A stretch of DNA of 64,000 bases from Rhodoplanes serenus (GTDB lineage Bacteria; Pseudomonadota; Alphaproteobacteria; Rhizobiales; Xanthobacteraceae), in contig WNKV01000018.1 in NCBI GenBank assembly GCA_009720755.1, positions 62,001-126,000 of the forward strand, written 5' to 3'. Position 1 is the stretch's first letter; every line of letters starts with the position of its first letter. A model generated the notes under the pieces. It worked only from the letters and a program-made list of their open reading frames with translations, was not told the DNA's origin and made no database searches. Below are positions 1 to 53,023 of the stretch, in pieces. A program made the translations under genes and the position numbers.

Positions 1-86
1 AAACTCGGAACTCTCGGCTGGATTCCGGACAGCCGCGTCGCGGCTTCCGGAACGACCACCAAATTGATCAGCCGGATCTCGTGTCA
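1..86 (-). repeat. Stop-codon-anchored palindromic repeat, copy 1 (cut by window edge)
   Basis: Read on the minus strand, this copy starts with the TGA stop codon of hpnH (84-86) and continues without gaps in the same sequence as copies at 19293 and 52893. It contains the shared hairpin (arms ATTCCGG/AGCCGC and their complements, with CGTTCC instead of CATTCC here). The second hairpin seen in the other copies would lie before base 1. It probably acts as a REP-like terminator or RNA-stability element for hpnH; the function is inferred. Confidence 0.8.
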
Positions 87-1241
87 CTCCGCCGCGGTGA
101 GGCGGGGACGCGACGCATCGCCGGCGGGCGGCTCGGCGGCGTGGATCTCGGCGATCTTGTTCTCGACGTGGCGCGAAAACACATACTCGGCCGGTCGCTG
201 GCCCGACAGGTCGATCTCCGGCGCCATCTCGCCTTCGGTCTTCACGCCGAACAGCGCCACCTTCAGGGCGGCGAGCGGCTGGCGCATGGTGGCGTCGGCG
301 GCGGTCGGCTCGTAGCCGCAGTGCGCCATGCAGTCGGCGCACTTCTCGTAGCGGCCGGTGCCGTAGGAGTCCCAGTCGGTGGTCTCCATCAGCTCCTTGA
401 AGGTCTTCGCATAGCCCTCGCCGACCAGGTAGCACGGCTTCTGCCAGCCGAAGATGTTGCGGGTCGGCATACCCCACGGCGAGCACAGGAACTCCTGATT
501 GCCGGCCAGGAAGTCGAGGAACAGGCCGGAATGCATGAACGTCCACGTCTTGCCCTTGCCGAGCGCGAACACCTTGCGGAACAGCTCCTTGGTGCGGCGA
601 CGAGCGAGGAAGTGCTGCTGGTCGGGGGCGCGCTCGTAGGCGTAGCCGGGCGAGATCGACACGCCGACACCGAGCTCGGTGGTGAAGTCCATGAAGGCCG
701 CGATGTCCTCGGCCGGCATGCCCTCGAACACCGTCGCGTTGACGTTGACGGCGAAGCCCTTGGCCTTGGCGGCCTTGATGGCCGCGACGGCGCGGTCGAA
801 GGTGCCGGCCTGGCAGACCGAGCGGTCGTGATGCTCCTTCAGGCCGTCGAGATGCACCGAGAAGAACAGGTAGGGCGACGGCTCGAACAGGTGCAGCTTC
901 TTCTCCAGAAGCAGCGCATTGGTGCACAGCGACACGAACTTCTTGCGCGCCACGATGCCGGCGACGATCTCGCCGATCTCCTTGTGGATCAGCGGCTCGC
1001 CGCCCGGGATGGCGACCATCGGGGCGCCGCACTCGTCGACCGCGGCGAGGCAGTCGGCCACCGACATGCGCTGATTGAGGATCGCCTCGGGATAGTCGAT
1101 CTTGCCGCAGCCGGCACAGGCGAGATTGCAGCGGAACAGGGGCTCCAGCATCAGCACCAGCGGATAGCGCGTCCGCCCGAGCAGCTTCTGCTTGAGCACG
1201 TAGGCGCCAATCCGCATTTCCTTGAAGAACGGTATCGCCAT
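84..1241 (-). CDS. hpnH: HpnH, radical SAM adenosyl-hopene transferase
   Basis: HpnH joins a 5'-deoxyadenosyl radical to hopene to give adenosylhopane, the first step of bacteriohopanepolyol side-chain synthesis. The 385-residue protein shows the radical SAM cluster motif C38-x3-C42-x2-C45 (FRCNLACAGC), then the GGEPL motif typical of the radical SAM core, and an HpnH-type C-terminal region. I chose the ATG at 1241 (MAIPFFKEMR) because the longer frame would begin with TTG at 1265; an AGGG sits just upstream. The gene is divergent from hpnN, which moves hopanoids to the outer membrane. Its stop codon is the first triplet of a dispersed palindromic repeat. Family assignment is firm. Confidence 0.95.
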   Translation of the reverse strand: MAIPFFKEMRIGAYVLKQKLLGRTRYPLVLMLEPLFRCNLACAGCGKIDYPEAILNQRMSVADCLAAVDECGAPMVAIPGGEPLIHKEIGEIVAGIVARKKFVSLCTNALLLEKKLHLFEPSPYLFFSVHLDGLKEHHDRSVCQAGTFDRAVAAIKAAKAKGFAVNVNATVFEGMPAEDIAAFMDFTTELGVGVSISPGYAYERAPDQQHFLARRRTKELFRKVFALGKGKTWTFMHSGLFLDFLAGNQEFLCSPWGMPTRNIFGWQKPCYLVGEGYAKTFKELMETTDWDSYGTGRYEKCADCMAHCGYEPTAADATMRQPLAALKVALFGVKTEGEMAPEIDLSGQRPAEYVFSRHVENKIAEIHAAEPPAGDASRPRLTAAE

Positions 1242-1273
1242 TGTCCCTGCTTTCTCGACGTCCAAGCTGTCTA

Positions 1274-1307
1274 CAAGCTGTCTCGAAGTCCAAGCTGTCT
1301 CGAAGTC
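1274..1307 (+). repeat. 17-bp perfect tandem duplication
   Basis: CAAGCTGTCTCGAAGTC occurs at 1274-1290 and again immediately at 1291-1307, preceded by a partial copy (CCAAGCTGTCT) at 1262. It lies in the 5' leader of hpnH. It may be replication slippage; no function is evident. Confidence 0.85.
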
Positions 1308-1405
1308 CGATCCGGATCGAGGCCCGATCCGAGATCGAGGCGCGACCCGGCCCGGGCCTCGCCATCATGTCCGAACGGCCCGACCGAACGGCGGAACCGG
1401 CCGTG

Positions 1406-1450
1406 TAGAGCATTTCCCGGCGAAGGTGAAACGGTTCGCCGTCGAAAACG
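1406..1450 (+). repeat. Rhizobiales 'gagcatttt'-type dispersed element (candidate)
   Basis: The stretch from TAGAGCATTTCCCGGCGAAG through GGTTCGCCG to GAAAACGTGACG matches, from memory, the layout of a palindromic element scattered in many Hyphomicrobiales genomes (GAGCATTTTCCGGCGAAG...CCGGTTCGCCG...GAAAATGCGAC). Only one copy is visible in this window, so repeat status rests on recognition and not on a second copy. Confidence 0.5.
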
Positions 1451-1994
1451 TGACGAGATCAGAAAACAAAAACGTGTTCGGCACCGCGATGGAACCGGCC
1501 GCCCGTCGGGGGCGGACTGTCGTCACCCCGACGCGGGTCCCGACCGACCCGCCGCTCCTGGGCATTTCCATAGATTTTTCAGTCACTCAGGCGTACAGCC
1601 TCAGCTCCTGCCGCGGACTGGCGGCCGATCGGCCGCCGGCAGCCCCAGTTCCTCACCCCCGCTCGCCGGCGGGTCGACCCTTGTTACTGAAACATATTGA
1701 TAATCCGTGAGTTGAACCCGTCAACCCCGGGCGCGTTGGGTTTGTGACGGCGCGCGTCCGGCGGGCCGCTCCGCTGCCGGATGCGACAACGCCCCGTGGC
1801 ATCCGGGGTTGCCACCTCAATTCCGGCCCGATTATGAAGGACATGCTCGGCGGCCCGCCGAGGCCGTGCAGTTTCGATTGTCGTGCGGCGACGCGGCGTG
1901 CATCCCGGATCACGCTCTCCGGGTTCGCCCGACCAAGGCACGCGACAGGACTGCTCGCGACAAACCCATCTCACACCCCCCGCGACCGCGCCCC

Positions 1995-4652
1995 ATGCTC
2001 GTCTCGACGATCGTCCGCACCGTCCGCTTCTGCATCCGGCATTCGAAGACCGTCGTGGCGCTCTATCTGGTGCTCGCCGCGGTCGCCGGCGTCTACGCGG
2101 CGCGCAACTTCGCCATCGATACCGACGTCAACAAGCTGATCTCGCCGGCGCTCGACTGGCGCCAGCGCGAGATCGAGTTCGAGAAATCCTTCCCGGGCCG
2201 CTTCGACTCCATCCTGGTGGTGGTCGATGCGCCGACCGCCGAGCTCGCCTCGCGGGCGGTGGCGGCGCTCACGCCGCGCTTGAAGCAGAACACCACCGCG
2301 TTCCGCTCCGTCGAGGAAGCGGGCGGTGGCCCGTTCTTCGCCCGCAACGGGCTCCTGTTCCAGTCGGTCGAGGAGCTGGACGCAACCGTCAAGGGCTTGT
2401 CGCAGGCGGGACCGCTGGTGCGCACGCTGGCCGGCGATCCGACCCTACGCGGCCTCGTTCAAGGCATGTCGCTGGTGCTGTCGGGCGTGCGCGGCAACAT
2501 GGTGTCGCTCGACGCCGCGGCGCCGGCCTTCGATCGCGCCGCCGGCGCCATCGAAGCCACCATGGCGGGCCGCCCGGCGACGTTCTCCTGGCAGTCCCTG
2601 ATGACCGGCAAGGAGCCGGCGCCGCAGGATCTGCGGCGCTTCATCACCGTGCGGCCGGTGCTGGACTTCTCGGCGCTCCAGCCGGGTGCCGCCGCCTCCG
2701 CGGCGATCCGCGACGCCGCCCGCGATCTCGATCTCGCCGGCCAGTATCAGGCGCGGGTCCGCCTCACCGGCCCGATCGCCATGGCGGACGAGGAGTTCTC
2801 GACGCTCCAGAGCGGCGCGCTGCGCGATGCCTTCGCCACCGTCGTGGTGGTGCTCGGCATCCTATGGCTGGCGCTGCGCTCCGGTCGGCTGATCTTCGCG
2901 GTCTACGCCAACATGTTCGTCGGCCTCGCCGTCACGGCGGCGCTCGGCCTCATGATGGTGGACGCGCTCAACCCGATCTCGGTCGCCTTCGCGGTGCTGT
3001 TCATCGGCCTCGGCGTCGATTTCGGCATCCAGTTCGCCGTACGTTACCGCGCCGAGCGCCACGAGATCGACGATCTGCGCACCGCCCTGATCGCGACCGC
3101 GCGCCGCATCGGGGCACCGCTGACGCTCGCCGCCAGCGCGGTCGCGGCCGCCTTCCTGTCGTTCACGCCGACCGACTACAGCGGCATCTCGGAGCTCGGC
3201 AAGATCGCCGGCGTCGGCATGCTGATCGCGCTCGTCACCAGCGTGACGCTGCTGCCGGCGCTGCTGACGCTGCTCAACCCGCGGGGCGAGCCGGCCGAGA
3301 TCGGCTACCGCCAGCTCGCGCCGGTCGATCGCTTCCTGGAGCGCCACCGCATTCTCGTGGTCGGCGGCACCGGGCTCGTGGCGCTGCTCGGCGCGCCGCT
3401 GCTGTTCTGGCTCACCTTCGACTTCAATCCGATCAACCTGCGCAACAAGTCGGTGGAGTCGGTGGCGACGCTGCTGGATCTGCGGGCCGACCCGAATGTC
3501 GGCGCCAATGCCATCGACGTGCTGGCGCCCAACGCCACCGAGGCCGCCACCATCGCGGAGCGGCTGCGCACGCTGCCCGAGGCGGGCCGGGTGCTGACGC
3601 TCGCGAGCTTCGTGCCATCCGATCAGGAGCAGAAGCTGGCCCAGATCGAGAGCCTCAAGAAGGTGCTCGGGCCGGCCCTGCAACCCCGCATGATGCCGCC
3701 GCCGACCGATGCCGACAACGTGGCGGCGCTACGCCGCGGCCAAAGCCTGCTCGACCAGATCGTGGTCGATCGCAGCGGCCCGGGGGTCGCCGCCTCGCAG
3801 CGGCTGTCGGCGGCGCTCGGCCGCCTCGCCGAGGCCGATCCGGCGATGCGCGACAAGGTGCAGGCCGTCTTCATCGTGCCGCTCAAGACCGTCCTCGACC
3901 AATGGCGCGATCTCCTGGAGGCGCAGCCGATCACCCGCGAGTCGCTGCCGCCGGAGTTCGTGCGCGACTGGGTCACGGCCGACGGCCGCGTCCGTGTCGA
4001 GGTGACGCCGAAGGGCGATCCCAACGACACCGAGGTGCTGCGGGGCTTCGCCCGCGCCATGCTGGCCGCCTATCCGGCCGCCACCGGCGCGCCGATCTCC
4101 ATCCTCAAGTCCGGCGAGACCGTGGTGTCGGCCTTCGCGCAGGCCGGCAGCTACGCGCTGCTGTCGATCACGCTGCTGCTGTGGATCGTGCTGCGGCGGT
4201 TCGGCGACGTGCTGCTCACCCTGGTGCCGCTGCTGCTCGCCGGCGTGCTGACGCTGGAGTTCTGCGTGCTGATCGGCATGCCGATGAACTTCGCCAACAT
4301 CATCGCGTTGCCGCTGCTGCTCGGGGTCGGCGTCGCGTTCAAGATCTACTACATCATGGCGTGGCGGGCCGGGCAGACGGGGCTCCTGCAATCGAGCCTC
4401 ACCCGCGCGGTGATCTGGAGCGCACTCACCACGGCGACCGCGTTCGGCAGCCTGTGGATGTCGAGCCACCCCGGCACCTCCAGCATGGGCGAGCTCTTGG
4501 CGCTCTCGCTCGTCACCACGATGTGCTTCGCGGTGCTGTTCCAGCCGGCCCTGATGGGGCCGCCGCGGGTGATCGAGAAGGAGGAGCCGGTGACGCCGGA
4601 GGAACCCGACGTGGCGACGGCACGGCCGGCCGACCGGGTGTCGGCCGACTGA
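1995..4652 (+). CDS. hpnN: HpnN, hopanoid RND transporter
   Basis: HpnN is an inner-membrane RND/MMPL-type transporter needed to move hopanoids to the outer membrane. The 885-residue protein has an N-terminal membrane helix (about residues 19-37) followed by the IDTDVNKL segment, a first large periplasmic loop, a membrane cluster with the SSD-like GLGVDFGIQFAVRYR segment, a second periplasmic loop, and a final membrane cluster. This is the two-fold repeat and length expected of the family. I chose the ATG at 1995 (MLVSTIVRTVRF); the frame stays open upstream but those residues are low-complexity and not membrane-like. A strong bidirectional-looking terminator follows at 4704-4732. Confidence 0.94.
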   Translation: MLVSTIVRTVRFCIRHSKTVVALYLVLAAVAGVYAARNFAIDTDVNKLISPALDWRQREIEFEKSFPGRFDSILVVVDAPTAELASRAVAALTPRLKQNTTAFRSVEEAGGGPFFARNGLLFQSVEELDATVKGLSQAGPLVRTLAGDPTLRGLVQGMSLVLSGVRGNMVSLDAAAPAFDRAAGAIEATMAGRPATFSWQSLMTGKEPAPQDLRRFITVRPVLDFSALQPGAAASAAIRDAARDLDLAGQYQARVRLTGPIAMADEEFSTLQSGALRDAFATVVVVLGILWLALRSGRLIFAVYANMFVGLAVTAALGLMMVDALNPISVAFAVLFIGLGVDFGIQFAVRYRAERHEIDDLRTALIATARRIGAPLTLAASAVAAAFLSFTPTDYSGISELGKIAGVGMLIALVTSVTLLPALLTLLNPRGEPAEIGYRQLAPVDRFLERHRILVVGGTGLVALLGAPLLFWLTFDFNPINLRNKSVESVATLLDLRADPNVGANAIDVLAPNATEAATIAERLRTLPEAGRVLTLASFVPSDQEQKLAQIESLKKVLGPALQPRMMPPPTDADNVAALRRGQSLLDQIVVDRSGPGVAASQRLSAALGRLAEADPAMRDKVQAVFIVPLKTVLDQWRDLLEAQPITRESLPPEFVRDWVTADGRVRVEVTPKGDPNDTEVLRGFARAMLAAYPAATGAPISILKSGETVVSAFAQAGSYALLSITLLLWIVLRRFGDVLLTLVPLLLAGVLTLEFCVLIGMPMNFANIIALPLLLGVGVAFKIYYIMAWRAGQTGLLQSSLTRAVIWSALTTATAFGSLWMSSHPGTSSMGELLALSLVTTMCFAVLFQPALMGPPRVIEKEEPVTPEEPDVATARPADRVSAD

Positions 4653-4703
4653 CCGGCTTCCATGCTCCCCTCGGCCGGAGGTGGAGAGACGAACCCCCAA
4701 AGC

Positions 4704-4732
4704 AAAATGCCCGCCTCGCGGCGGGCATTTTT
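4704..4732 (+). terminator. Rho-independent terminator between convergent hpnN and DUF2147 gene
   Basis: AAAATGCCCGC, a six-base loop and GCGGGCATTTT form a perfect 11-bp stem. An A-run precedes it and a T-run follows it, so it can work for hpnN on the plus strand and for the convergent DUF2147 gene on the minus strand. Confidence 0.9.
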
Positions 4733-4787
4733 CATTCGGCTCGTCCGATGCAGCCGGCGAACCCGGCGCGGCGGCGAGACCGCCGGT

Positions 4788-5495
4788 TCAGCGCGGCGCG
4801 GCCGGCGCCGGAGCGCCCTGGCGGGCGGCGGCGCCACCGCGCGGCGTGGTCTGCGGCTGCTCGGCGACGACCGGCAGGCCGGTGGCATCGGCCACCGCCA
4901 TGCACACGTCGCGCACCGTATCGAACGGCTTCGTCGCCCCAACGCCCGGGGCCGAGGCGGCCGCCCCAGTGGTCGCACCGGGCGTGGTCGCGCCGGGCGT
5001 CGCGGCCCCGCGGGCCGACGAGGCCGGCGGCTTCGCGGCCGCCGGCTTCTGGGCCGGCAGGCCGGCGGCCGTGCGGGTCCAGGTCTGGCCGCCGCACAGG
5101 AAGCCGAGCACGCAGCCCTGCACCTGGAGCTGGTCGGGGCTCGCGAGGCTGATATTGGCCGTGTAGGTCTTGCCGTTCTGGGCGTTGTAGATCTCGCCCT
5201 CCCAGCGGTTCGGATTGGTCGGCTGCATGCCGAGCAGGATCGGCATGCCGAGCGTCGGCCGCACCCGCTTGGCCGGATCGGGATTCTCCTTGTCGGTGCC
5301 GCCCGGCTCCTTCTCCCAGGAGATCAGGCCCCACAGCCGATTGGCGCAGGACTCGATGCGCACCCGCGCGACGCCGTCGGCGACGAGCCATTCGCCGGTG
5401 GGCTCCGCCGCGATGGCCGGCGCCGCCGGCATGGCCAGCAGCACCGCCGCGAGAGCGACCCATCCGCCGCGACCCGTACACGTCTTGTCGATCAT
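4788..5495 (-). CDS. DUF2147 family exported protein with Pro/Ala-rich extension
   Basis: The 235-residue product begins with a signal peptide (hydrophobic segment WVALAAVLLAMPAAPAIAA, then EPTGEWLVADG). A DUF2147-type domain follows, recognised by GEWLVADGVARVRIESC, GLISWEKEP, the LGMPILLGMQP segment and the C-terminal CVLGFLCGGQTW. DUF2147 proteins are small envelope proteins of unknown biochemical function. The last 90 residues are unusual: a Pro/Ala/Thr-rich linker and then a short segment, FDTVRDVCMAVADATGLPV, that is not part of the usual domain. I took the ATG at 5495 because it gives a complete signal peptide; the open frame upstream does not resemble protein. Function unknown. Confidence 0.8.
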   Translation of the reverse strand: MIDKTCTGRGGWVALAAVLLAMPAAPAIAAEPTGEWLVADGVARVRIESCANRLWGLISWEKEPGGTDKENPDPAKRVRPTLGMPILLGMQPTNPNRWEGEIYNAQNGKTYTANISLASPDQLQVQGCVLGFLCGGQTWTRTAAGLPAQKPAAAKPPASSARGAATPGATTPGATTGAAASAPGVGATKPFDTVRDVCMAVADATGLPVVAEQPQTTPRGGAAARQGAPAPAAPR

Positions 5496-5674
5496 GGTTC
5501 GCTCCAAACGATCGTGCCTGACATGGTCGGTTGAACGGGCTTTCAACACGCCAAAATCGTCGAAACAGGGGCAACAACCGCGATCGGACGCCAGGCGAAA
5601 CGATCGGCACCACCTCCCCGGCGTCGATGACGGCCGGCGAGGAGCGCCGGTATCCGCCGGGAATGCCGTCGGTA

Positions 5675-6247
5675 TCAGCCGGCGAAACCGCCAGCCTCCA
5701 GAAACGCCCGCTCGGCCGCCGTGGTGTCGCGCCCCAGAATGACGTTGCGGTGAGGAAAACGCCCGAACCGCCGGATGATGTCGGCGTGAACCTCGGCGTG
5801 ATGGAGGCCCTCGGCATCCCCGGCCGCCCGGCACAGGGTGACGCAGAGCTCCTGGTCCTCCAGCTCCTCGGAGTGCATCCACGGCAGGTAGAAGCAGCGC
5901 CGCACCGGGTTGTCGTAGACGGCGTCGAACTTGCGCGCCACCGCACGGCCCGCCACCGCGCGGGCGAGCGCGTCGGTCGCGAAAGCCCGCGGGTCGCCGC
6001 GGAACATGTTGCGTGGGAACTGGTCGAGCAGCAGGACGAGCGCGAGCGCCCCCTCCGGGCTCTCCTCCCAACCGTCGAGACGCCCGGCCGCCGCCGCCTC
6101 GTAGGCACCACCGAACCGCCCCCGGATCGCTTCGTCGATCCCCGTATCCTTGACGAACCAGCGCTCGGCACCGAGCGCCAGCCACCAGCCGACGATGTCG
6201 GCCGGCGTCGGCGGCCCGGCTTCCGGACGGGCGGGGGTGGTGCTCAT
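5675..6247 (-). CDS. DUF924 family protein
   Basis: The 190-residue soluble protein matches DUF924: an N-terminal IVGWWLALGAERWF motif, the LVLLLDQFPRNMFRGDPRAFATD core, FYLPWMHSEELEDQ, and the C-terminal FGRFPHRNVILGR. The family is all-helical (TPR-like fold) with no established reaction. Its ATG lies 8 bases after the CobW gene stop, so it is probably the last gene of a dacC-cobW-DUF924 transcript. A role linked to metal handling or the cell wall is only a guess from position. Confidence 0.88.
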   Translation of the reverse strand: MSTTPARPEAGPPTPADIVGWWLALGAERWFVKDTGIDEAIRGRFGGAYEAAAAGRLDGWEESPEGALALVLLLDQFPRNMFRGDPRAFATDALARAVAGRAVARKFDAVYDNPVRRCFYLPWMHSEELEDQELCVTLCRAAGDAEGLHHAEVHADIIRRFGRFPHRNVILGRDTTAAERAFLEAGGFAG

Positions 6248-6255
6248 GGCGGTTC

Positions 6256-7473
6256 CTATCGGTCGATGCCGCCGAACGGCACCAGGGGGTTGTCGATCAG
6301 GGCCGTGCGATCCGGACGGTCCGGACCGACCGCCGAGAGGAACGCCGCGAACAGCTCGCGCACCCGGCTCTCGGCGATGTCGCGCACGATCAGCACCAGG
6401 CGGGTGCGCCGGTCGTCGTCCGGCCAGGCGGGAAGCCGCGCGGGCGGATGGAAGACGTGCTGGACGCCGTGGATCACCAAGGGCGCGCCGGGCTCCTCGG
6501 CGAGCTTCACGATCCCTTTCAGGCGCAGAAGGTCCGGCCCGTGCACCGAGCGCAGAAGCTCGAGGAACATGTCGAAGGCGGCGGCCGGCACCGCTGCGTC
6601 GGTGGCCAGCGTGAAGGCGCGGATGTGATCGTCGTGCCGGTTCACGTCGTGCCGGCTCGCATCATGCCGGCTCGCGTGGCTCGCGCCGCCGTCATGGTCG
6701 TGGCCGTGGTGATGATGGCCGTGGTGATGGTGGCCATCGTGCTGTCCGTGCCGATGACCGGAGGCCGCGTAGGACTCTTCGGCCAGCCAGCGGCGGACGT
6801 CGAGGCTCTTGGTGGCCGGATCGTAGAGGCCGCAGCCGAGCAGACGGTCCGCCGTCGCGGCGGCGGCGTCGATCTGCGGCGCCGCCGGGTTAAGCACGCT
6901 CAGCCGTTCCCGTAGATCGCTCAGGGCGGCGCGCCGCTCCGGCGTGTCGGCGAGGTCGGTCTTGGCCAGCACCAGCCGGTCGGCGACCGCCGCCTGCTTC
7001 ACCGCCTCGGGGTGGGCGTCGAGGGTCGCGGCGCCGTTGACGGCGTCCACCACGGTCACCACGCCGTCCAGACGGAAGCGCATGACCAGATACGGATGCA
7101 CCATGGCGGTGTGGAGAATGGGGGCCGGATCGGCGAGCCCGGTGGTCTCCACCACCACGCGGTCGAAGGTCAGGCGTCCGTTGTCGAGGTCGCGGAGCAG
7201 GCTTTCCAGCGCCGTGACGAGATCGCCGCGCACCGTGCAGCACAGGCAGCCGGTGGACAGCATGACGACGCCGTCGCGCACCGGCTCCACCAGCAGATGG
7301 TCGAGCCCGATCTCGCCGAACTCGTTGATCAGCACGGCCGCACCGGCGAGCGCCGGATCGCGCACCAGACGGTTGAGGAGCGTCGTCTTGCCGGCACCGA
7401 GAAAGCCGGTGAGCACCGTCAGCGGCAGCGGCGCGAGCGGCCGGCGGGCGCGCGAATCGAACTCCTCGCTCAT
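6256..7473 (-). CDS. CobW/ZNG1-family metallochaperone GTPase
   Basis: This 405-residue protein belongs to the G3E GTPases that deliver zinc or cobalt to client proteins. It has the P-loop GFLGAGKTT (23-31), the metal-binding CLCC motif (76-79), the switch-region ETTGLADP (about 109-116) and LAKTD as the guanine-specificity element. Between the GTPase and C-terminal CobW domains is an expanded His-rich segment (roughly 240-280, runs of HHHHGHHHHGHDHD and RHD repeats), which suggests metal storage or sensing. Its ATG overlaps the upstream carboxypeptidase stop by four bases (ATGA), so the two are translationally coupled. No zinc-uptake (Zur) box was identified. Confidence 0.93.
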   Translation of the reverse strand: MSEEFDSRARRPLAPLPLTVLTGFLGAGKTTLLNRLVRDPALAGAAVLINEFGEIGLDHLLVEPVRDGVVMLSTGCLCCTVRGDLVTALESLLRDLDNGRLTFDRVVVETTGLADPAPILHTAMVHPYLVMRFRLDGVVTVVDAVNGAATLDAHPEAVKQAAVADRLVLAKTDLADTPERRAALSDLRERLSVLNPAAPQIDAAAATADRLLGCGLYDPATKSLDVRRWLAEESYAASGHRHGQHDGHHHHGHHHHGHDHDGGASHASRHDASRHDVNRHDDHIRAFTLATDAAVPAAAFDMFLELLRSVHGPDLLRLKGIVKLAEEPGAPLVIHGVQHVFHPPARLPAWPDDDRRTRLVLIVRDIAESRVRELFAAFLSAVGPDRPDRTALIDNPLVPFGGIDR

Positions 7474-10424: not shown

Positions 10425-10554
10425 GACACGGCGACCGTGCAGCACGGCGCCCGGCCACGCGCCAGACGTCGAGCTGTGTGCGGAGAGCTGCGTGCGGACG
10501 GCCATTGCGCGCGGCAAGCCCCGCCACCCGAAGACCGATCAACGCGGTGATCGA

Positions 10555-18230: not shown

Positions 18231-19295
18231 GTGGTCATGGCGTCGATCCGCAGTGAGGTGCGGGCCGCCGGCCCGATCCGCGAGCCCGGCGCCAAGGAGC
18301 CCGGCGCCAAGGAGCCCGGCACCAAGGAGCCCGGCACCAACGAGCCCGGGGCGAAGACGCTGGCCGAGGCGGTGTTCCGCAAGCTCCGCCAGGACATTCT
18401 GAAGTGCCGGTTCCGGCCCGGCGAGAAGCTGCTGCTCGAGTCGCTGCGCGAGATCTACGGCACCGGGCTCGCGCCCCTGCGCGAGGCACTGTCGCGTCTC
18501 AGCTCCACCGGGCTGGTCATCGCCGAGGGCCAGCGCGGTTTTAGGGTCGCGCCGATGTCGACCGACGATCTGGTCGACCTCGTCAAGGCGCGGGTGTGGG
18601 TCGAAGCACAGGCGCTGTCGGCCGCCATCGCGCGCGGCGACCGCGCCTGGCAGGCCGAGATCGTCGCCGCTGCGCAGCGGCTCGGCGTCGGCACCGGCGA
18701 GGCGGCCAATCGCGTCACCTATCTGGACGACGATTGGGTGAAGCGGCACAGCCGGTTTCATGCCGCCCTGGTGGCGGCGGCCGGCTCGCGTTATCTGCTC
18801 GAGTTCCGCGCCGCCCTGTTCGAGATGACCGATCGCTACTTCCGGCTCGCCGTCATCTACAAGCCGAACAGCCGCGACATCGACGCCGAGCACCGGGCCA
18901 TCATGGAGGCGGTGCTGGACCGCGACGCCGTCGCCGCCATCCGCCTCACGGAAGACCATCTGATGGAGACGATCCGCACCCTGCTGGTGCAGGACCCGGC
19001 CACGCGCGCGGATGCCGATGGCCGGATCGCGCGGCTCCGCCGCGAGATCGAGGAGGCCATGCCGGCGATCGTGCCGGCGCAGGTCGACCCGGCGCAGGTC
19101 GGACCATCGCCGGTCGGGGCGGGCGGCGATCGCGCGTCGCGCGGCAGATCCGTCGCGCGCAAGCCGGCAGGCCGCAAATCCGTCGACAGCAAATCAGTCG
19201 ACAACAAGTCGGCCGAAGGCACGTCAGCCGAAGGCACGTCCGCGGCGAGCCAGCCCGCAGCGCGCCGCGGCTCGCCGCCACTGCCGCGCGCCTGA
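18231..19295 (+). CDS. GntR-family regulator, FadR/FCD subclass, with low-complexity ends
   Basis: This 354-residue regulator has a GntR winged helix-turn-helix (about residues 42-105; LAEAVFRKLRQDILKCRFRPGEKL, PLREALSRLSSTGLV) and an FCD ligand-binding domain (about 115-255) with the metal-site-like pattern of Asp and His residues (DDDWVKRHSRFH, DIDAEHRAIMEAVL). The N terminus carries five EPGAK-like pentapeptide repeats and the C terminus about 80 residues rich in Ser, Lys and Ala, both unusual for the family. The start is uncertain: ATG 18237 is as plausible as 18231. Its TGA is the first triplet of palindromic repeat copy 2. Confidence 0.88.
   Translation: MVMASIRSEVRAAGPIREPGAKEPGAKEPGTKEPGTNEPGAKTLAEAVFRKLRQDILKCRFRPGEKLLLESLREIYGTGLAPLREALSRLSSTGLVIAEGQRGFRVAPMSTDDLVDLVKARVWVEAQALSAAIARGDRAWQAEIVAAAQRLGVGTGEAANRVTYLDDDWVKRHSRFHAALVAAAGSRYLLEFRAALFEMTDRYFRLAVIYKPNSRDIDAEHRAIMEAVLDRDAVAAIRLTEDHLMETIRTLLVQDPATRADADGRIARLRREIEEAMPAIVPAQVDPAQVGPSPVGAGGDRASRGRSVARKPAGRKSVDSKSVDNKSAEGTSAEGTSAASQPAARRGSPPLPRA
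18282..18356 (+). repeat. Five tandem 15-bp coding repeats
   Basis: GAGCCCGGCGCCAAG is repeated five times with few changes, the first two copies identical. In frame it encodes EPGAK/EPGTK units near the N terminus of the GntR regulator, so copy-number changes would keep the frame. Confidence 0.92.
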
Positions 19296-19441
19296 GACCA
19301 GATCTGGCTGTTCAATTCGGCGGTCATTCCGGAAGCCGCGAAGCGGCTGTCCGGAATCCAGCCGAGAGTCAAAAGCCTGCCGCGGGATGACGTGTTTGGC
19401 TGGGTTCCGGGCTCGCCGCTTCGCGGCGCGCCCGGAACGAC
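19293..19441 (+). repeat. Stop-codon-anchored palindromic repeat, copy 2
   Basis: It starts at the TGA of the GntR gene and aligns without gaps for about 75 bases with copies 1 and 3. Hairpin 1 is 19326-19357 (ATTCCGG.AGCCGC, GAA loop, GCGGCT..CCGGAAT). A second hairpin follows near 19404-19439 (TTCCGGGC.CGCCGC/GCGGCG.GCCCGGAA). This gives the complete two-hairpin layout. Confidence 0.85.
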
Positions 19442-19543
19442 GGCGAACCGATCACCCGGAAACAGTATGACCGGGCGGACGAGCCACGGCCCGCGGCCCC
19501 GTCTCGTCGCTCCCGGCCGGACGGTCCGCGGCGCAAGCGCCGA

Positions 19544-43290: not shown

Positions 43291-43377
43291 GCGACGCCCG
43301 TCCTGTCTGGTTGGTCATGTCCGGCGCGCCGATCTCGCGAGGCGATCTCGACGAGGCGACGCGCCGGCCTGCCGACC

Positions 43378-44649: not shown

Positions 44650-44729
44650 ACTGATGCTCCAATGACGGGATCGACAATGACGGGGGTCGAGGCTGAGGGG
44701 TATCCGACGCGGGCCTGGCGTCGCGTCGC

Positions 44730-46043: not shown

Positions 46044-46048
46044 GGCGC

Positions 46049-46621: not shown

Positions 46622-46623
46622 GG

Positions 46624-47625
46624 CTACCTGTTCCGCTCCAGCAGGGTGGCGGCCTCGGCGAAGGCATCCTTCGGCATCACCCCTTCGTAGTATTTCCAGA
46701 GCGCCTCGTTGGCGACCTTGGTCCAGCGGTCACGGTCGGCCTCCGACAACGCGACGATCTCCATGCCGGCCGCCCGCATGGCCGCCTTCTGCTTGTCGAG
46801 ATTCTCGGCGAACCAGCCGCGGGTCCAGGTCTGCGTCTCGGCCACGGCGCGCATCAGCACGTCCTGAGCATCCTTGCTCAGCCGGCTCCACGCCCGCTGA
46901 TTGACCACGATGCTGACGCCGCTGCGATACATCGGCTGGTCGATCAGGAACTTGCTGACGTTCTGCCAACCGTAACGAGTGAACGCATCGGCCACCGGCC
47001 AGCTGAACCCGTCGACGGTGCCGCGGTCCATGGCGAGGAAAATCTCGGCCGGTGGCAGGGTGATCGACTCGGCACCCGCGGCCTGGACGAAGTGGCGGGT
47101 CACCGGCGCCACCCGGATCTTCATGCCCTTGAGATCCTCGATGCGGGCGACGCGCTTGCGAGTGGTGATGTAATGGGTGCCGACCCCGAGGTCGCCGGCC
47201 GCATGGCCGAGGAAGCGCACGCCGCGTCGCTCGTAGAGCTTGACCATGAACTGATGCAGCGCGCTGCCGGGGCCGCCGTCGGGCGCCAGGAAGGGCGACA
47301 GCTCGGTGATGTCGCCGCCCGGCACCACGCCGGCCCAGTAGTTGGGCGCGCCGTACCACACATCGAACACGCCGTTGACCAGCGCCTCCGGCTGATCGAA
47401 CGGCGGCACCACGTCCTCGGCGCCGATGTAGCGGATGGCGACCTTGCCGGCGCCGTGCTGGTTCACCAGGTCCTTGAACTTGTGGCCGACATCGGCCGAC
47501 GGCGAGAAGCCCGGCGCCCACGATCCGACCATGCGCAGCGTGACGGTCTGCGCGGCAGTTTCCAATGGGGCCAAGGTCGCCGCACCGAGCGCGACCATCA
47601 GCCCGAGACACACCCTTCGATTCAC
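46624..47625 (-). CDS. TRAP transporter receptor (DctP-like), copy A
   Basis: The 333-residue periplasmic receptor has a signal peptide (VCLGLMVALGAATLAPLETAAQ) and a DctP fold (VTLRMVGSWAPGFSPSADVG; VNGVFDVWYGAPNYWAGVVPG; LKGMKIRVAPVTRHF). The R in KIRV matches the Arg that binds the ligand carboxylate in characterised TRAP receptors. GTG 47625 was chosen because GAGGAG lies seven bases upstream. It is the copy next to dctQ and closely resembles copy B upstream. Confidence 0.92.
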   Translation of the reverse strand: MNRRVCLGLMVALGAATLAPLETAAQTVTLRMVGSWAPGFSPSADVGHKFKDLVNQHGAGKVAIRYIGAEDVVPPFDQPEALVNGVFDVWYGAPNYWAGVVPGGDITELSPFLAPDGGPGSALHQFMVKLYERRGVRFLGHAAGDLGVGTHYITTRKRVARIEDLKGMKIRVAPVTRHFVQAAGAESITLPPAEIFLAMDRGTVDGFSWPVADAFTRYGWQNVSKFLIDQPMYRSGVSIVVNQRAWSRLSKDAQDVLMRAVAETQTWTRGWFAENLDKQKAAMRAAGMEIVALSEADRDRWTKVANEALWKYYEGVMPKDAFAEAATLLERNR

Positions 47626-47708
47626 GAGACGACTCCTCGACGGCGACGTGTTGTTGCAGGCGATCGGGGCCGCTGCCGCGACGGCAGCAGCCCGCACAGG
47701 CGGCGGCG

Positions 47709-48728
47709 TCAGCGCTTGCGCTCCAGCAGCGTCTCGGCCTTGGAGAAGTCGTCGGGTGTCATCACAGTCTGAAGATACTTCCAGAGCGATTCCTGCGCGG
47801 CCTCGGTCCAGCGGCGCTTCTCCTCGTCCGGGATCGACAGGATGCGCATGCCGCCGGCCTTCATCTTGTCGATCTGCTTGCCCTGCTGCTCGGCGAACCA
47901 GTCGCGCGTCCACGCCTGGGTCTGCTTCACCGCATCCATCACCACGGCCTGGAGGTCGGGCGGCAGCGCGTCCCACTTCTTCAGGTTCATCGCGATGCCG
48001 GTGCCGCTGCGGTACATCGGATGGTCGATCATGAACTTGGTGACGTTCTGCCAGCCGTAATTGGCGAAGCCGTCGGCGACCGGCCAGGTGAAGCCCTGCA
48101 CGGTGCCACGGTCCATGGCGAGGAAGATCTCGCTCGGCGGCAGCGTCACCGACTCGGCGCCGACACCCTGCACGAAATAGCGGGTGAGCGGCGGCACCCG
48201 GACCTTGAGGCCCTTGAGATCGGCGACCGCCTTGATCTCCTTCTGAGCGTGCAGGAAGTGCGAGCCGATGCCGGGCACGCCGGTGTAGTGGCCGAGGTAG
48301 CGGACGCCGCGCCGCTTGTACATCTCGCCCATGAAGTCGAACAGCGCGCTACCCGGACCCTGATCGGGGACCTCGAAGCTCGACAGCTCGGTGACGTAGC
48401 CGCCCGGGATGACGCCGGCCCAGTAGTTCGGTGCGCCGTACCAGACGTCGAACACGCCGTTGACCAGCGCCTCGGGCTGATCGAACACCGGCACCACGTC
48501 CTCGGCGCCGACATAGCGAATGGTCAGCCGACCCTTCGACAGCTCGCCGACCAGATCCTTGAACTTGTGCCCGACATCCGCATAGGGCGACACACCCGGC
48601 GCCCAGGCGCCCACCATGCGCAACGTGACGCGCTGCTGCGCCTCCGCCGACGGCGGACCGGCCAGCACCGCGAGACCGAGCGCCAGCCCGGCCAAACCGA
48701 GTTTCGTGACACCTCGCCTGCTCGCCAT
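47709..48728 (-). CDS. TRAP transporter receptor (DctP-like), copy B
   Basis: The 339-residue receptor parallels copy A over its whole length (VTLRMVGAWAPGVSPYADVG; YGAPNYWAGVIPG; LKGLKVRVPPLTRYF), with clear divergence, so it is an old tandem duplicate. The ligand Arg (KVRV) is kept. The ATG at 48728 follows GGGAGG; the frame upstream to 48845 is less protein-like. It is the first gene of the leftward TRAP-deacylase run and its promoter region carries the shared bipartite motif. Confidence 0.92.
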   Translation of the reverse strand: MASRRGVTKLGLAGLALGLAVLAGPPSAEAQQRVTLRMVGAWAPGVSPYADVGHKFKDLVGELSKGRLTIRYVGAEDVVPVFDQPEALVNGVFDVWYGAPNYWAGVIPGGYVTELSSFEVPDQGPGSALFDFMGEMYKRRGVRYLGHYTGVPGIGSHFLHAQKEIKAVADLKGLKVRVPPLTRYFVQGVGAESVTLPPSEIFLAMDRGTVQGFTWPVADGFANYGWQNVTKFMIDHPMYRSGTGIAMNLKKWDALPPDLQAVVMDAVKQTQAWTRDWFAEQQGKQIDKMKAGGMRILSIPDEEKRRWTEAAQESLWKYLQTVMTPDDFSKAETLLERKR

Positions 48729-48982
48729 CGCGGCAACCTCCCTGCGTTTTCCTGCCATGCCGCGACGTGGCGCGGCTGTTGTTAGAGGTCGCGGACACCC
48801 AGGCGGGCATCCGGCCGTTTTCCGCACGATACGGTTCGCATGCAATGCTGTCTACAATTCTTTTCACGTTGCATACAAATTTTGGCTTCGCTAGGCTCCC
48901 GCATGATCGTTCATTGCGATCGTCGGAAAGCCGTGCGCGCCGCTGCATCGTGGCGCCGCCGGCCGTCGGGTGAGGGCCGCCG
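48729..48982. other. Divergent promoter region of the TRAP and molybdenum hydroxylase operons
   Basis: This 254-base region separates leftward and rightward operons. It contains a locally AT-rich segment (48835-48885) holding the bipartite operator candidate. No gene. Confidence 0.7.
48849..48879. promoter_or_regulatory. Shared bipartite operator candidate, site A
   Basis: TGTCTACAAT (48849-48858), ten bases, then TTGCATACAAA (48869-48879). The same arrangement with the same spacing occurs at 57211-57240. Each half resembles ATTGT-nn-ACA/TTGnATACAA palindromes bound by FCD-class GntR proteins, in opposite orientation to each other. It lies between dctP copy B and the FAD-subunit gene. Confidence 0.65.
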
Positions 48983-49849
48983 ATGAGACCATCCAGCTTC
49001 CGCTATCACAAGGCAGAGAGCGTGGATCACGCGCTGGAGCTGCTGGCTCGCTTCGGCGAGGACGGCCGTCCGCTCGCCGGCGGCCAGAGCCTCGTGCCGA
49101 TGATGAACCTGCGGCTGGCGGCGCCCGAGCATCTCGTCGACATCGGCGGCCTGCCGCTCACCGACATCGCCTTCACCGACACGGCGATGCGGGTCGGCGC
49201 CCTGGTGCGCCACCGGCAGTACCTCGCCGAGCCGCGCGTGGCCCACCATTTCCCGGCGCTGCACGAGGCGGTCACCTGGATCGGCCATCCGACCATCCGC
49301 GAGAACGGCACCACCGGCGGCAGCCTGTCGCATGCCGATCCGACCGCCGAGCTGGCGCTGGCGGCGATGCTCTATGATGCGGTGATGATCGTGCGCAACA
49401 CCGCGGGCGAGCGGCGCATCGCGGCGGCCGATTTTTTCGAGGACGCCTACGTCACCGCGCTGCAACCCGGCGAGATGCTGGTCGCGGCCGAGTTCCCGCT
49501 GCCGCCCGTCGGCGCCGCAGGCGCCTTCGTCGAGTTCGCCGAGCGGCGTGGCGATTTCGCCATCGCGGCGATCGGCGTGTCGATCACCGTCGCCGACGGA
49601 CGCATCGCCACCGCGGCGATCGCCTGCTCGGGCGCCGAGCCGCGGCCGATCCGGGCGCCAGAGATCGAGATGATGCTGTCCGGCCGGCCGCTCACCGATC
49701 CGCAGTCGCGCGCCGCGGGACGCCGGCTCGCCGCCGCGATCGACCCGGTCGGCACGTTTCTCACCACCGCGGACTACCGCAAGGCCCTGATCGGCGAGCT
49801 GACCGCACGGGCCATCGACACCGCTTGCGCGAGGGCTGCGAGCCGATGA
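48983..49849 (+). CDS. Molybdenum hydroxylase FAD-binding subunit (CoxM/XdhB-like)
   Basis: The 288-residue subunit carries electrons from the iron-sulfur clusters to an acceptor through FAD. The FAD motifs AGGQS (32-36) and TTGGSLSHADP (110-120) are present, followed by the CO dehydrogenase flavoprotein-like C-terminal domain. Its stop overlaps the next ATG by four bases. Together with the next two genes it forms a complete three-subunit enzyme. Confidence 0.93.
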   Translation: MRPSSFRYHKAESVDHALELLARFGEDGRPLAGGQSLVPMMNLRLAAPEHLVDIGGLPLTDIAFTDTAMRVGALVRHRQYLAEPRVAHHFPALHEAVTWIGHPTIRENGTTGGSLSHADPTAELALAAMLYDAVMIVRNTAGERRIAAADFFEDAYVTALQPGEMLVAAEFPLPPVGAAGAFVEFAERRGDFAIAAIGVSITVADGRIATAAIACSGAEPRPIRAPEIEMMLSGRPLTDPQSRAAGRRLAAAIDPVGTFLTTADYRKALIGELTARAIDTACARAASR

Positions 49850-50346
49850 CGATCGACATCACCCTCACGGTGAACGGCACCGCCAGGACGGTGCGGGTGG
49901 AGCCGCGCCGGCTGCTCGCCGATGTGCTCCGCCACGACTTCGCGCTCTCCGGCGTCCATGTCGGCTGCGCGCACGGCGCCTGCGGCTGCTGCACCGTCCA
50001 TGTCGACGGAACGCCGCGCCTCGCCTGCCTCACCTTCGCGGTTCAATGCGACGGCAAGGCGATCCACACGGTGGAGAGCCTCGGCGGTGTCGACGCGACG
50101 CACCCGCTCCAGCAGGCGTTCTCGATCGAGCACGGCCTGCAATGCGGCTACTGCACGCCGGGCTTCCTGATGACGCTGGCGCCGTTCGTCGATGCCATGG
50201 TGGCCGAGCGCCGCGTGCCGGAGGACGCGGAGATCCGCGAGGCGATGAGCGGCAACATCTGCCGCTGCACCGGCTATCACGGCATCGTGGCGGCGGTCCG
50301 CCGGGCCGTCACCGAGCAGATCGAGACGGGGAGCGCCCAGCCATGA
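49846..50346 (+). CDS. Molybdenum hydroxylase 2Fe-2S subunit (CoxS-like)
   Basis: This 166-residue subunit has the N-terminal 2Fe-2S ligands C41, C46, C49 and C61 (GCAHGACGCC) and the C-terminal cluster ligands C100, C103, C139 and C141 (QCGYC, ICRC). The ATG at 49846 overlaps the FAD-subunit stop (ATGA) and is preferred to 49825. It overlaps the large-subunit start by four bases. Confidence 0.94.
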   Translation: MTIDITLTVNGTARTVRVEPRRLLADVLRHDFALSGVHVGCAHGACGCCTVHVDGTPRLACLTFAVQCDGKAIHTVESLGGVDATHPLQQAFSIEHGLQCGYCTPGFLMTLAPFVDAMVAERRVPEDAEIREAMSGNICRCTGYHGIVAAVRRAVTEQIETGSAQP

Positions 50347-52775
50347 CGAGTGCGGATCGTCGGCACCAGATCGGCGGAGCTGATCGTCCGCGTCACATCG
50401 GCGCGCGGGTCAGACGGGTCGAGGACCGCCGCCTTCTCTCCGGCGCGGCGCGCTATCTCGACGACATCCGCCAGCCCGGCATGCTGCATCTCGGCTTCGT
50501 GCGCGCCCAGGCGGCGCATGCCCGGATCACCGACATCGACACCAGCGCGCTTGCGGATCTCGGTGCCGAGATCCGGGTGTTCACCGGCCAAGACACAAGC
50601 GGCCTGACCATCAAGGCGCCCGCTGGGCACGACCCGAAGAGCGCCGCACTGCCGGACGGCCATCAAGGCTACTGGCGCATGCAGGACTCCGAGCAGCCGC
50701 TGCTCGCCGACGGCGTGGTGCGCTTCGTCGGCGAGCCGATCGCCGCCGTGCTGGCCGAAGACGCCTATGTGGCCGAGGACGCCGCCGAGCGGATCGCGGT
50801 CGCCTACGAGGCGCTGCCCGTCGTCGCCACCATGGCGCAGGCGCAGGACCCGTCGATCCCGCCGATCTTCGCGGGCTGGACCAGCAACGTCTATATCGAG
50901 CGGCAGATGGCGGGCGGCGATCTCGCGGCGGCACGCGCCGCCGCTGCCCATGTGATCCGCCGCACCTACTACAACCAGCGCCAGGCCGGCGTGCCGATGG
51001 AGGGCCGCGGCGTGGTCGCGGCCTACGATCCGGCCGACCGCGTCCTCACCGTGTGGTCGTCGACCCAGATCCCGCATCTCGTGCGCACCTACCTGGCCGA
51101 GGAGCTGGGCTTCCCCGAGTCGCGCCTGCGCGTCGTCGCGCCGGAGGTCGGCGGCGGCTTCGGGGTCAAGGGCCAGGTGTTCGTCGAGGAGGTGCTGGTC
51201 GCCTGGCTGGCGCTGAAGACGGGCCGCCCGGTGAAATGGGTGGAGGACCGGCGCGAGCACCTGGTCGCCAGCATTCATGCGCGCGACCACCTGCACACCC
51301 TCACCGCCTATGTGGCGGCCGACGGCCGGCTGCTCGGCCTCGAAGCCGACATCACGGTCGATGTCGGCGCCTACTCGACCTTCCCGTTCACCGCCGGCGG
51401 CGATCCCGGCATGGCCGCCAAGGTGCTGCCCGGCCCCTACGACATTCCGGCCTACGCGGCGACCTTCCGGGCGCTCGCCACCAACAAGTGCCCGCTCGGC
51501 ACCTACCGGGGCGTCGCCCGTCCCTCCGCGGTGTTCTCGCAGGAGCGGCTGATGGACGATATCGCGGCGGAGATCGGGATGGACCCGATCGAGCTGCGGC
51601 TGCGCAACGTCGTCCGCACCTTTCCCTACAAGAACGCGCTCGGCTTCTCCTACGACGAGGGTTCTTACGCCCAGGCGCTGGAACGGGTGCGCGACCTCGT
51701 CGCCGAGGACCGCGCCGCGGCACGCGCCTCGCGGGCGTCGGCCACCACGCGGATCGGCGTCGGCGTCGCCTGCTTCATCGAGCAGTCGTCGCACGGCACG
51801 CCCGACTTCACGCGGCGCCGGGTGCCGATCGAGACCGGCTATATCGCGGCGCGCGTCACGATGGAGCCGGACGGCGAGGTGACCGTCGATATCGGTCTCC
51901 AGAACCACGGCCAGGGCCACGAGACCGTGATGGCTCAGGTCGCCGCCGATGCGCTCGGCGTCGCCCCCGAGAACGTCCATGTGCGCCAGGGCGACACGCT
52001 GACGACGCCCTACTCGGTCGGCACTTGGGGCAGCCGCGGCGGCCCGCTCGGCGGCGGTGCCGTGCACGAGGCGGCGCTGAAGATCGCCGCCAAGCTGAAG
52101 GCGATCGCCGCCCACCTGCTCCAGACGGACGCGAGCCGCATTGCGCTCCACGGCGGCCGCGCCGTCGTGATCGGCAACGAAGGCAGCTACGTCGAGATCC
52201 GGCGGCTCGCCCGCATCGCGTTGCGCAATGTCGATCAGATGCCGGCCGGCATGGAGCCGGGACTCGAGGCGCAATGCAGCCTCGACGGCCCGGCCGACGG
52301 GACGTATTCCAACGCCGTGCACGCCGCCGTGGTGGAGATCGACATCGCCACCGGCAAGCTGCGGCTGCGCCGCTTCGTCGTGGTGGAGGACTGCGGCACC
52401 ATCCTCAACCCGCTGATCGTCGACGGCCAGGTGCGCGGCGGCGTCGTCCAGGGCATCGGCTCGGCGCTCCTCGAGCACTTCATCTATGACGAGGACGGCC
52501 AGCCGCTGACCACCAGCTTCGCCGACTATCTGATGCCGCTGGCGCCCGAGATCCCGAACATCGAGGTCCACCATATCGAGACGCCGACGCCGCGCACGCC
52601 GCTCGGTGCCAAGGGGCTCGGCGAAGGCGGCGCCATCGGGCCGCCGGCTGCCATCGCCAACGCGGTCGCCGATGCGCTCGGCGTTCCGGTGAGCGCGACG
52701 CCGCTCAACGCCAACACCCTCTGGACGCTGGCGGCCGACATCCGGGCAGCGGCCGAGACGGACCGCGACGGCTGA
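50343..52775 (+). CDS. Molybdenum hydroxylase large subunit (CoxL/XdhA-like, not CO dehydrogenase)
   Basis: The 810-residue catalytic subunit binds molybdopterin cytosine dinucleotide. It has GGGFGVKGQ, the active-site loop TYRGVARP (387-394) and catalytic E761 (KGLGEGGAIG). True CO dehydrogenase has VAYRCSFR with a copper-binding Cys in this loop; here the Cys is absent, so the enzyme should hydroxylate an organic ring or aldehyde. No coxDEF maturation genes are nearby. The start is fixed by the four-base overlap. The substrate is unknown. Confidence 0.92.
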   Translation: MTSADRRHQIGGADRPRHIGARVRRVEDRRLLSGAARYLDDIRQPGMLHLGFVRAQAAHARITDIDTSALADLGAEIRVFTGQDTSGLTIKAPAGHDPKSAALPDGHQGYWRMQDSEQPLLADGVVRFVGEPIAAVLAEDAYVAEDAAERIAVAYEALPVVATMAQAQDPSIPPIFAGWTSNVYIERQMAGGDLAAARAAAAHVIRRTYYNQRQAGVPMEGRGVVAAYDPADRVLTVWSSTQIPHLVRTYLAEELGFPESRLRVVAPEVGGGFGVKGQVFVEEVLVAWLALKTGRPVKWVEDRREHLVASIHARDHLHTLTAYVAADGRLLGLEADITVDVGAYSTFPFTAGGDPGMAAKVLPGPYDIPAYAATFRALATNKCPLGTYRGVARPSAVFSQERLMDDIAAEIGMDPIELRLRNVVRTFPYKNALGFSYDEGSYAQALERVRDLVAEDRAAARASRASATTRIGVGVACFIEQSSHGTPDFTRRRVPIETGYIAARVTMEPDGEVTVDIGLQNHGQGHETVMAQVAADALGVAPENVHVRQGDTLTTPYSVGTWGSRGGPLGGGAVHEAALKIAAKLKAIAAHLLQTDASRIALHGGRAVVIGNEGSYVEIRRLARIALRNVDQMPAGMEPGLEAQCSLDGPADGTYSNAVHAAVVEIDIATGKLRLRRFVVVEDCGTILNPLIVDGQVRGGVVQGIGSALLEHFIYDEDGQPLTTSFADYLMPLAPEIPNIEVHHIETPTPRTPLGAKGLGEGGAIGPPAAIANAVADALGVPVSATPLNANTLWTLAADIRAAAETDRDG

Positions 52776-52892
52776 TGCCGGCCGTCGCCGCTCTCGCCCC
52801 TCTTCGTCATGGCCGGGCCGCGACCCGGCCATCCATCAAAGGACGGACCAAGCTCTTCTGGGCTCATGCTGATTTCGGGTGATCAGTGCACC

Positions 52893-53023
52893 GTCATTCC
52901 GGGGCGCCGCGCAGCGGCGAGCCCGGAATCCAGCGGCAAACTCGGAGTTCTCGGCCGGATTCCGGATAGCCGCTTCGCGGCTTCCGGAATGACCACCAAA
53001 TTGATCAGCCGGCTCTCGTATCA
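52893..53023 (-). repeat. Stop-codon-anchored palindromic repeat, copy 3
   Basis: On the minus strand it starts with the TGA of the ammonia-lyase gene (53021-53023), then runs through hairpin 1 and hairpin 2 (ATTCCGGGC.CGCCGC/GCGGCG.CCCCGGAAT). From the TGA it aligns gap-free with copy 1 for 86 bases. It fills most of the 245-base spacer between two converging operons. Confidence 0.88.

What the first reader, a model, noticed from the sequence alone, without database searches (positions are those of the whole stretch)
1..53023. A palindromic repeat whose first three bases are the TGA stop codon of three unrelated genes
Copies at 1-86 (minus), 19293-19441 (plus) and 52893-53023 (minus) align without gaps starting at the T of TGA: TGA-N-ACGAGA-CCGGCTGATCAAT is shared by copies 1 and 3, with copy 2 close. 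The TGA is the stop of hpnH, of a GntR gene and of an ammonia-lyase gene. After about 35 bases a strong hairpin follows, then (copies 2 and 3) a second one. Either the element inserts exactly at stop codons, supplies the stop itself, or is a conserved 3'-end module acting as terminator or RNA stabiliser. A fixed relation to the stop codon is not a usual property of REP elements.
Basis: seen in the sequence. Interest (0 to 1): 0.72.

Follow-up and report, generated by a model that had tools for sequence, protein, structure and literature searches.

The report
Mobile element duplicating TGA stop codons
The repeat is a small jumping DNA element that inserts at a three-letter site such as TGA and leaves a copy of it on both sides, so that when those letters are a gene's stop signal the gene keeps its stop and its protein is not changed.

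Summary
The element runs TACGAGATCCGG...CACCCGGAAACAGTA, and the same triplet, TGA or TCA, stands on both sides in 28 of 50 copies with a recognised right end (permutation maximum 23). With TGA the stop belongs to the left gene, with TCA to a minus-strand gene on the right. Of 56 strong genomic copies 33 touch a TGA stop exactly; of the 28 intact ones, 22. One Blastochloris insertion aligns 500/500 without gaps to two relatives' empty sites with TGA once. The element is a MITE; its probable partner is an IS630-type insertion sequence with the same ends. IS630 elements are described as duplicating TA; the homologues I could read (13 of 19) all show TNA. Most of the coincidence follows from a TNA target plus loss of harmful insertions: per intergenic region, 14.5 stop hits expected and 21 seen here, 14.5 and 20 in Blastochloris. 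A modest true preference stays possible.

The parts
1..83 (-). copy 1 of the MITE, left part; the rest lies outside the window (G000:C9 below 62001)
   Evidence: locus L008
84..86 (-). left TSD of copy 1 = TGA stop of hpnH
   Evidence: right TSD not recognisable
87..1241 (-). hpnH, adenosyl-hopene transferase (host gene)
   Evidence: TIGR03470 550.5 bits; gene
18231..19292 (+). GntR/FCD family regulator (host gene)
   Evidence: PF00392, PF07729
19293..19295 (+). left TSD of copy 2 = TGA stop of the GntR gene
19296..19467 (+). copy 2 of the MITE, 172 bp, terminal inverted repeats at both ends
   Evidence: locus L033
19468..19470 (+). right TSD of copy 2, TGA
52864..52866 (-). right TSD of copy 3, TGA on the minus strand
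52867..53020 (-). copy 3 of the MITE, 154 bp
   Evidence: locus L001
53021..53023 (-). left TSD of copy 3 = TGA stop of the ammonia-lyase gene
53024..54208 (-). diaminopropionate ammonia-lyase (host gene)
   Evidence: NF006058 474.2 bits

Best explanation
The repeat is a miniature inverted-repeat transposable element (MITE), 150-207 bp in the intact copies. Shown: imperfect terminal inverted repeats that begin with TAC, a 3-bp target duplication, and, for a related MITE in Blastochloris, one precise empty site in two relatives. Inferred: it was moved in trans by an IS630-type transposase with the same terminal repeats. This clade appears to cut the target with a 3-bp stagger at TNA (TGA/TCA in these GC-rich hosts, also TAA/TTA), not at TA. 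When the target is a gene's stop codon, the duplication puts a complete stop on the gene's side, in either element orientation, so the protein is untouched. In a compact, GC-rich genome the TGA stops are a large share of the TNA sites where an insertion does no harm. The coincidence with stops is therefore mostly target triplet plus purifying selection, perhaps with a mild extra preference.
For: The same triplet is on both sides in 28 of 50 copies with both ends recognised; sliding the right end by 1-6 bases gives 0-3, and 20000 permutations give a mean of 13.4 and a maximum of 23. In Blastochloris G101 it is 53 of 69 end pairs, permutation mean 26.5, maximum 43. Where a stop is hit, TGA-TGA copies have the left gene's stop and TCA-TCA copies the right gene's stop. 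Empty site 500/500 ungapped in two relatives. IS copies with the same ends: L196 in Blastochloris, with HTH_33 + DDE_3, and Methylocystis L312 and L313, TGA on both sides. In Rhodoplanes G004 eight contig ends carry, read by eye, the 3' end of a like transposase gene, then the terminal repeat and TGA or TCA. Stop-codon null: 0.245 of noncoding TSA (S = G or C) sites are TGA stops. Per-region expectation 14.5 of 26 against 21 seen in G000 and 14.5 of 48 against 20 in G101. With the flanks joined, 5 of 79 intact copies fall inside a called gene, though 84% of TSA sites in 164 kb of G000 are coding.
Against: 22 of 50 G000 copies lack identical triplets, two of them (L040, L067) with TGA on the left and TCA on the right; I read this as decay. 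No autonomous IS with these ends was found in the window's own genome. Residual excess at stops over the per-region null: P 0.0002 in G000 and 0.018 in G101; in G101 it is gone (P 0.12, 0.44) when the 50 or 100 nt before starts are left out, in G000 it is not (P 0.0003, 0.001). One IS630-like copy in G003 (L222) is followed by TAT, not TNA. Six of 19 homologue loci gave no readable pair of ends. Genes were called by my own codon-usage script.
Confidence: 0.82

Rival explanations
1. Active stop-codon targeting: the transposase, or a factor coupled to translation or transcription ends, is drawn to stop codons, not merely to TNA triplets.
For: 22 of 28 intact copies at stops against 0.245 expected for noncoding TSA sites (P 2.7e-9); per-region excess 21 against 14.5 in G000 (P 0.0002) and 20 against 14.5 in G101 (P 0.018).
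Against: If only gene 3' flanks away from starts count, 0.54 (within 200 nt) or 0.73 (within 60 nt) of the sites are stops and the P values in G000 are 0.007 and 0.35; in G101 there is no excess under the first of these (23 of 51, P 0.34). 28 of 51 intact G101 copies are not at stops. No longer shared motif at the targets beyond a weak A/T at -2 and A at +2.
Confidence: 0.12
2. A 3'-end module: a terminator or RNA stabiliser kept by selection next to stop codons.
Against: The triplet is duplicated on the far side where it has no use; 12 left and 10 right stops among the 28; interiors differ between species while ends are shared; relatives have the same gene end without the element. Secondary use by the host is not excluded.
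Confidence: 0.04
3. A REP/BIME family moved by a RAYT (IS200-like tyrosine) transposase.
For: High copy number and palindromic, mostly intergenic, GC-rich hairpins.
Against: A target duplication and terminal inverted repeats are not RAYT marks (recalled); the REPs tied to RAYTs in PMC3733652 (passages read) end in GTAG, these do not; no RAYT gene was looked for. The ends match an IS630-type IS instead.
Confidence: 0.02

Closest known systems
IS630-family insertion sequences (Tc1/mariner superfamily), e.g. ISY100
   Same: Winged helix (HTH_33) + DDE_3 transposase, about 1.17 kb, terminal inverted repeats with TA at the tips, MITEs that share the ends
   Different: ISY100 and IS630 are described as duplicating TA (34 of 39 in vitro products for ISY100; PMC2170065, abstract and passages read); here a TNA triplet outside the TA tips is duplicated
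RUP of Streptococcus pneumoniae with IS630-Spn1; MITEPlu5 of Photorhabdus
   Same: Small non-autonomous elements linked to IS630-type elements by shared end sequences (PMC2229807 and PMC6267812, passages read)
   Different: Both are described with TA targets, not a 3-bp TNA duplication; no link of insertion sites to stop codons in the passages read
IS5 family, IS1031 group
   Same: 3-bp TNA target duplication (recalled, from no call)
   Different: The transposase found here is DDE_3 with HTH_33, not an IS5-type; terminal repeats begin TAC, not GAG (the latter recalled)
REP/BIME palindromes
   Same: Many intergenic GC-rich hairpins
   Different: Has terminal inverted repeats and a target duplication

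Membership tests
MITE (non-autonomous DNA transposon) | terminal inverted repeats at both ends | tested here: met
   consensus ends TACGAGATCCGGCTGATC and TACTGTTTCCGGGTGATC; imperfect
MITE (non-autonomous DNA transposon) | target-site duplication | tested here: met
   28 of 50 copies, permutation maximum 23; empty site of a related MITE in two relatives
MITE (non-autonomous DNA transposon) | short, no transposase gene, many copies | tested here: met
   150-207 bp in the 28 intact copies, 56 strong copies in G000
MITE (non-autonomous DNA transposon) | autonomous partner with the same ends | tested here: met
   in related genomes and plasmids (L196, L312, L313; G004 contig ends by inference), not found in the own genome
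IS630 family (the partner) | DDE_3 catalytic domain and winged helix | tested here: met
   PF13358 62.1 bits and PF13592 29.8 bits for the two ORFs of L196
IS630 family (the partner) | 2-bp TA target duplication | tested here: not met
   13 of 19 homologue loci had readable ends; all 13 have a matching TNA on both sides (12 of 15, 1 of 4; read by eye); empty site of the related MITE has TGA once
IS630 family (the partner) | transposition activity of the enzyme on these ends | not testable with these tools
   needs an assay
REP/RAYT system | repeat ends in GTAG | tested here: not met
   the ends read TAC...GTA followed by the duplicated triplet
REP/RAYT system | RAYT gene associated with the repeat | not tested
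   no search for a RAYT gene was made

The most novel reading that the evidence does not exclude
A whole clade of IS630/Tc1-mariner-type transposases, from Rhodoplanes relatives and Methylocystis to Thermus, Deinococcus and a cyanobacterium, has shifted from the TA duplication to a 3-bp TNA duplication, and in addition its elements actively prefer stop codons, the one codon whose duplication leaves the host protein unchanged. The first half has good evidence here; the active preference has little.
Probability: 0.12. Interest if true: 0.78.

Novelty: new variant of a known kind. Interest (0 to 1): 0.52.

Why it matters
It explains a puzzling register between a repeat and stop codons by simple arithmetic: a 3-bp duplication of TGA regenerates the stop. 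It shows a neat way for a mobile element to be harmless. It also suggests that the TA rule of IS630 elements is not general: a clade duplicates TNA, which would mean a 3-bp stagger from a Tc1/mariner-type enzyme and can be tested directly. Practically, annotators should not read such repeats as conserved 3' modules or terminators only because they begin at stops.

Tried and rejected
Element supplies or moves the stop: rejected by aligned relatives. TA as the duplication, with TNA as chance flanks: rejected because the two triplets agree far more than chance and by the 500/500 empty site. IS110-type partner: L192 first looked like an autonomous copy of 1.36 kb, but its IS110-type gene lies between the hairpin arms of a MITE, so I take it as nested. 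Known RNA family: no Rfam match at gathering scores in the window. Papers: ten searches listed none that I recognised, from titles and abstract starts, as reporting stop-codon MITEs of this kind or a TNA duplication in IS630; the library lacks most subscription journals. Papers of which I saw passages: PMC2229807, PMC6267812, PMC10214660, PMC2170065, PMC8944449, PMC3733652.

Left out of the counts: one very weak R1 hit (C11:421393), the right-end-only site L077, and at least six further left-end pattern matches in G000 (e.g. C22:468950, C5:90240, C22:385587, C44:4701, C48:113846, C5:51891) were not analysed. Of the loci, L214, L215, L217, L219, L221, L223 and L224 were scanned only for the known end pattern, not for inverted end pairs. 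One search stopped on a missing file after one line; searches printed nothing.
Full report
What is in the window. The TGAs are the stops of HpnH, a GntR/FCD regulator and a diaminopropionate ammonia-lyase. Rfam has no match at gathering scores in the window.

The genome. The window lies in a 5.50-Mb genome in 51 contigs. A covariance model of the left 81 bases, built from 30 copies, gave 56 strong hits (48 bits or more); I also fetched 20 weaker ones lying elsewhere. The genus is Rhodoplanes: same-genus genomes G004 and G001 have contig lengths equal to records titled Rhodoplanes sp. Cfx2-03 and R. tepidamans DSM 9987.

The triplet is a target-site duplication. The consensus left end is TACGAGATCCGGCTGATC; the right end reads ...TGATCACCCGRAAACAGTA. 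Just outside, the left triplet is TGA in some copies and TCA in others, and the right triplet repeats it. Of 76 hits, 50 have a right end recognised with a mismatch score of at most 6 (the loosest may be false), and 28 of these have the identical triplet: 16 TGA, 12 TCA. Sliding the right end by 1-6 bases gives 0-3 matches; 20000 permutations of right triplets among copies give a mean of 13.4 and a maximum of 23. The 22 others are unequal, most with TGA or TCA on one side and two with TGA left and TCA right (L040, L067); I read them as decayed.

Which gene has the stop. I called genes with a codon-usage script trained on the window and 100 kb of background (coding share of the window 0.865). 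Where a stop is hit, copies with TGA have the left gene's stop exactly at the left triplet; copies with TCA have a minus-strand gene on the right whose stop is exactly the right triplet. Of the 28 intact copies 22 sit on a TGA stop (12 TGA, 10 TCA). Of the 56 strong hits 33 do: 17 at the left end, 16 at the right; 23 do not. Of the 20 weak ones 7 do. Both orientations occur about equally, which a 3'-end module would not do.

Empty sites. I joined the flanks of insertions with the triplet kept once and compared them with relatives. The Blastochloris G101 insertion at 1561121 aligns over 500 of 500 bases without a gap to G072 (90.6%) and to G122 (85.8%): the relatives have TGA once, as the stop of the same gene. 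G072 is Blastochloris sulfoviridis or very close (2001 of 2001 bases identical to its record). The other comparisons align on one side only or with small gaps, so the length of the duplication cannot be read from them, but the relative's gene ends in TGA at the same place in 16 of 20; with the two above, 18 of 22. In the four others (L350, L320, L351, L330) the alignment breaks at the junction. Not all of these sites are empty. Two further orthologous sites in G072 are occupied, L340 by nearly the same element and L322 by a shorter one.

Relatives. R1 hits at E 1e-6 occur in 16 of 60 genomes, the own one included; the five matches beyond the genus that I read (L087, L088, L097, L098, L104) share only the hairpin core, by eye. 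The exact terminal repeat plus TSA occurs in 7 of 391 family genomes: four Rhodoplanes and three of one other genus, Blastochloris. Interiors differ: Rhodoplanes G003 has CCCTCTCCC hairpins, Blastochloris another, while the ends are shared. In the one-contig Blastochloris genome G101 I could pair both ends for 69 copies (sites found by a pattern that asks for TSA with at most one mismatch; two pairs share a right end, so two copies are counted twice, one of them among the 51 below). 53 have identical triplets: 26 TGA, 25 TCA, 2 TTA (permutation maximum 43). One TTA pair stands at the start of the right-hand minus-strand gene call, that is, on a TAA stop. With the flanks joined, 5 of the 79 intact copies of both genomes (L017, L024, 309051, 968384, 3198827) fall inside a called gene; three of these, L017, 309051 and 3198827, are also at the stop of the neighbouring gene.

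The partner IS. L196 in Blastochloris G122 is a 1165-bp element with the same ends and TGA on both sides; its two ORFs match HTH_33 and DDE_3, and the transposase stop lies inside the right terminal repeat. An A-rich run between the ORFs, and overlapping ORFs in Methylocystis rosea, suggest frameshifting (inferred). In Rhodoplanes G004 the terminal repeat with TGA or TCA sits at contig ends; eight of them carry what reads, by eye, as the 3' end of a like gene, so a long repeat there was probably lost in assembly (inferred). Two Methylocystis plasmid copies at 63% identity have the same ends and TGA on both sides. I looked at 15 loci, mostly chosen by hand from the hit lists: 12 have a readable pair of ends starting with TA, and all 12 have an identical TNA on both sides (TGA: L196, L312, L313, L358, L363, L367; TCA: L360, L362; TTA: L364; TAA: L315, L365, L366). 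L314, L359 and L361 gave no such pair. In one search one of four further loci (L216, TGA) did, as the third-ranked pair; L213, L218 and L220 did not. I read the TNA flanks by eye from these outputs. L222, a piece in G003, is followed by TAT. IS630 and ISY100 are described as duplicating TA (PMC2170065, abstract and passages).

How far are stops preferred? In 164 kb of background, 124 TGA stops stand against 383 other noncoding TSA sites and 2629 coding ones. With all noncoding sites as the null (0.245) 22 of 28 has P 2.7e-9. If only sites within 200 nt after a stop and not within 150 nt before a start count, the null is 0.544 and P 0.007; within 60 nt it is 0.734 and P 0.35. In G101, 23 of 51: P 1.1e-8 against all noncoding sites (0.126), P 0.34 against the 200/150 null (0.414). 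The test I trust most gives each insertion its own intergenic region: 21 seen against 14.5 expected in G000 (26 of 28 usable, P 0.0002) and 20 against 14.5 in G101 (48 of 51 usable, P 0.018); leaving out 50 or 100 nt before starts makes P 0.0003 and 0.001 in G000 and 0.12 and 0.44 in G101. The five copies inside gene calls were dropped there. Target context shows only weak A/T at -2 and A at +2. So a TNA target and loss of harmful insertions explain most of the coincidence; a preference of about 1.4-fold in the window's genome is left over.

Hairpins. The hairpins may act on RNA 3' ends, but nothing here tests that.

Noticed in passing
L192:2016-3381 (G122:C1:301315-302680): An IS110-type DEDD transposase gene lies inside a MITE copy, between its hairpin arms.
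   Followed up: partly
window 52807-52833: A second short palindrome, TCATGGCCGGG...CCCGGCCA type, next to copy 3; a like one follows copy 1 outside the window (L008).
   Followed up: no
L003, L021, L054 just left of the element: A shared stretch TCCGAGAGTGCTGCCG(T/A)TGG precedes or replaces the left end in three copies, perhaps another repeat or a variant end.
   Followed up: no
L196 near 1449-1456; L312:1022-2085: A-rich run between two transposase ORFs, and overlapping ORFs in the relative: probable programmed frameshift.
   Followed up: no
G000 copies, right half: Two main size classes, about 150-155 and about 170-207 bp, the longer with extra sequence in the right half.
   Followed up: no
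L222 (G003:C81:1-389): IS630-like 3' end with the same kind of terminal repeat but followed by TAT, not TNA.
   Followed up: partly
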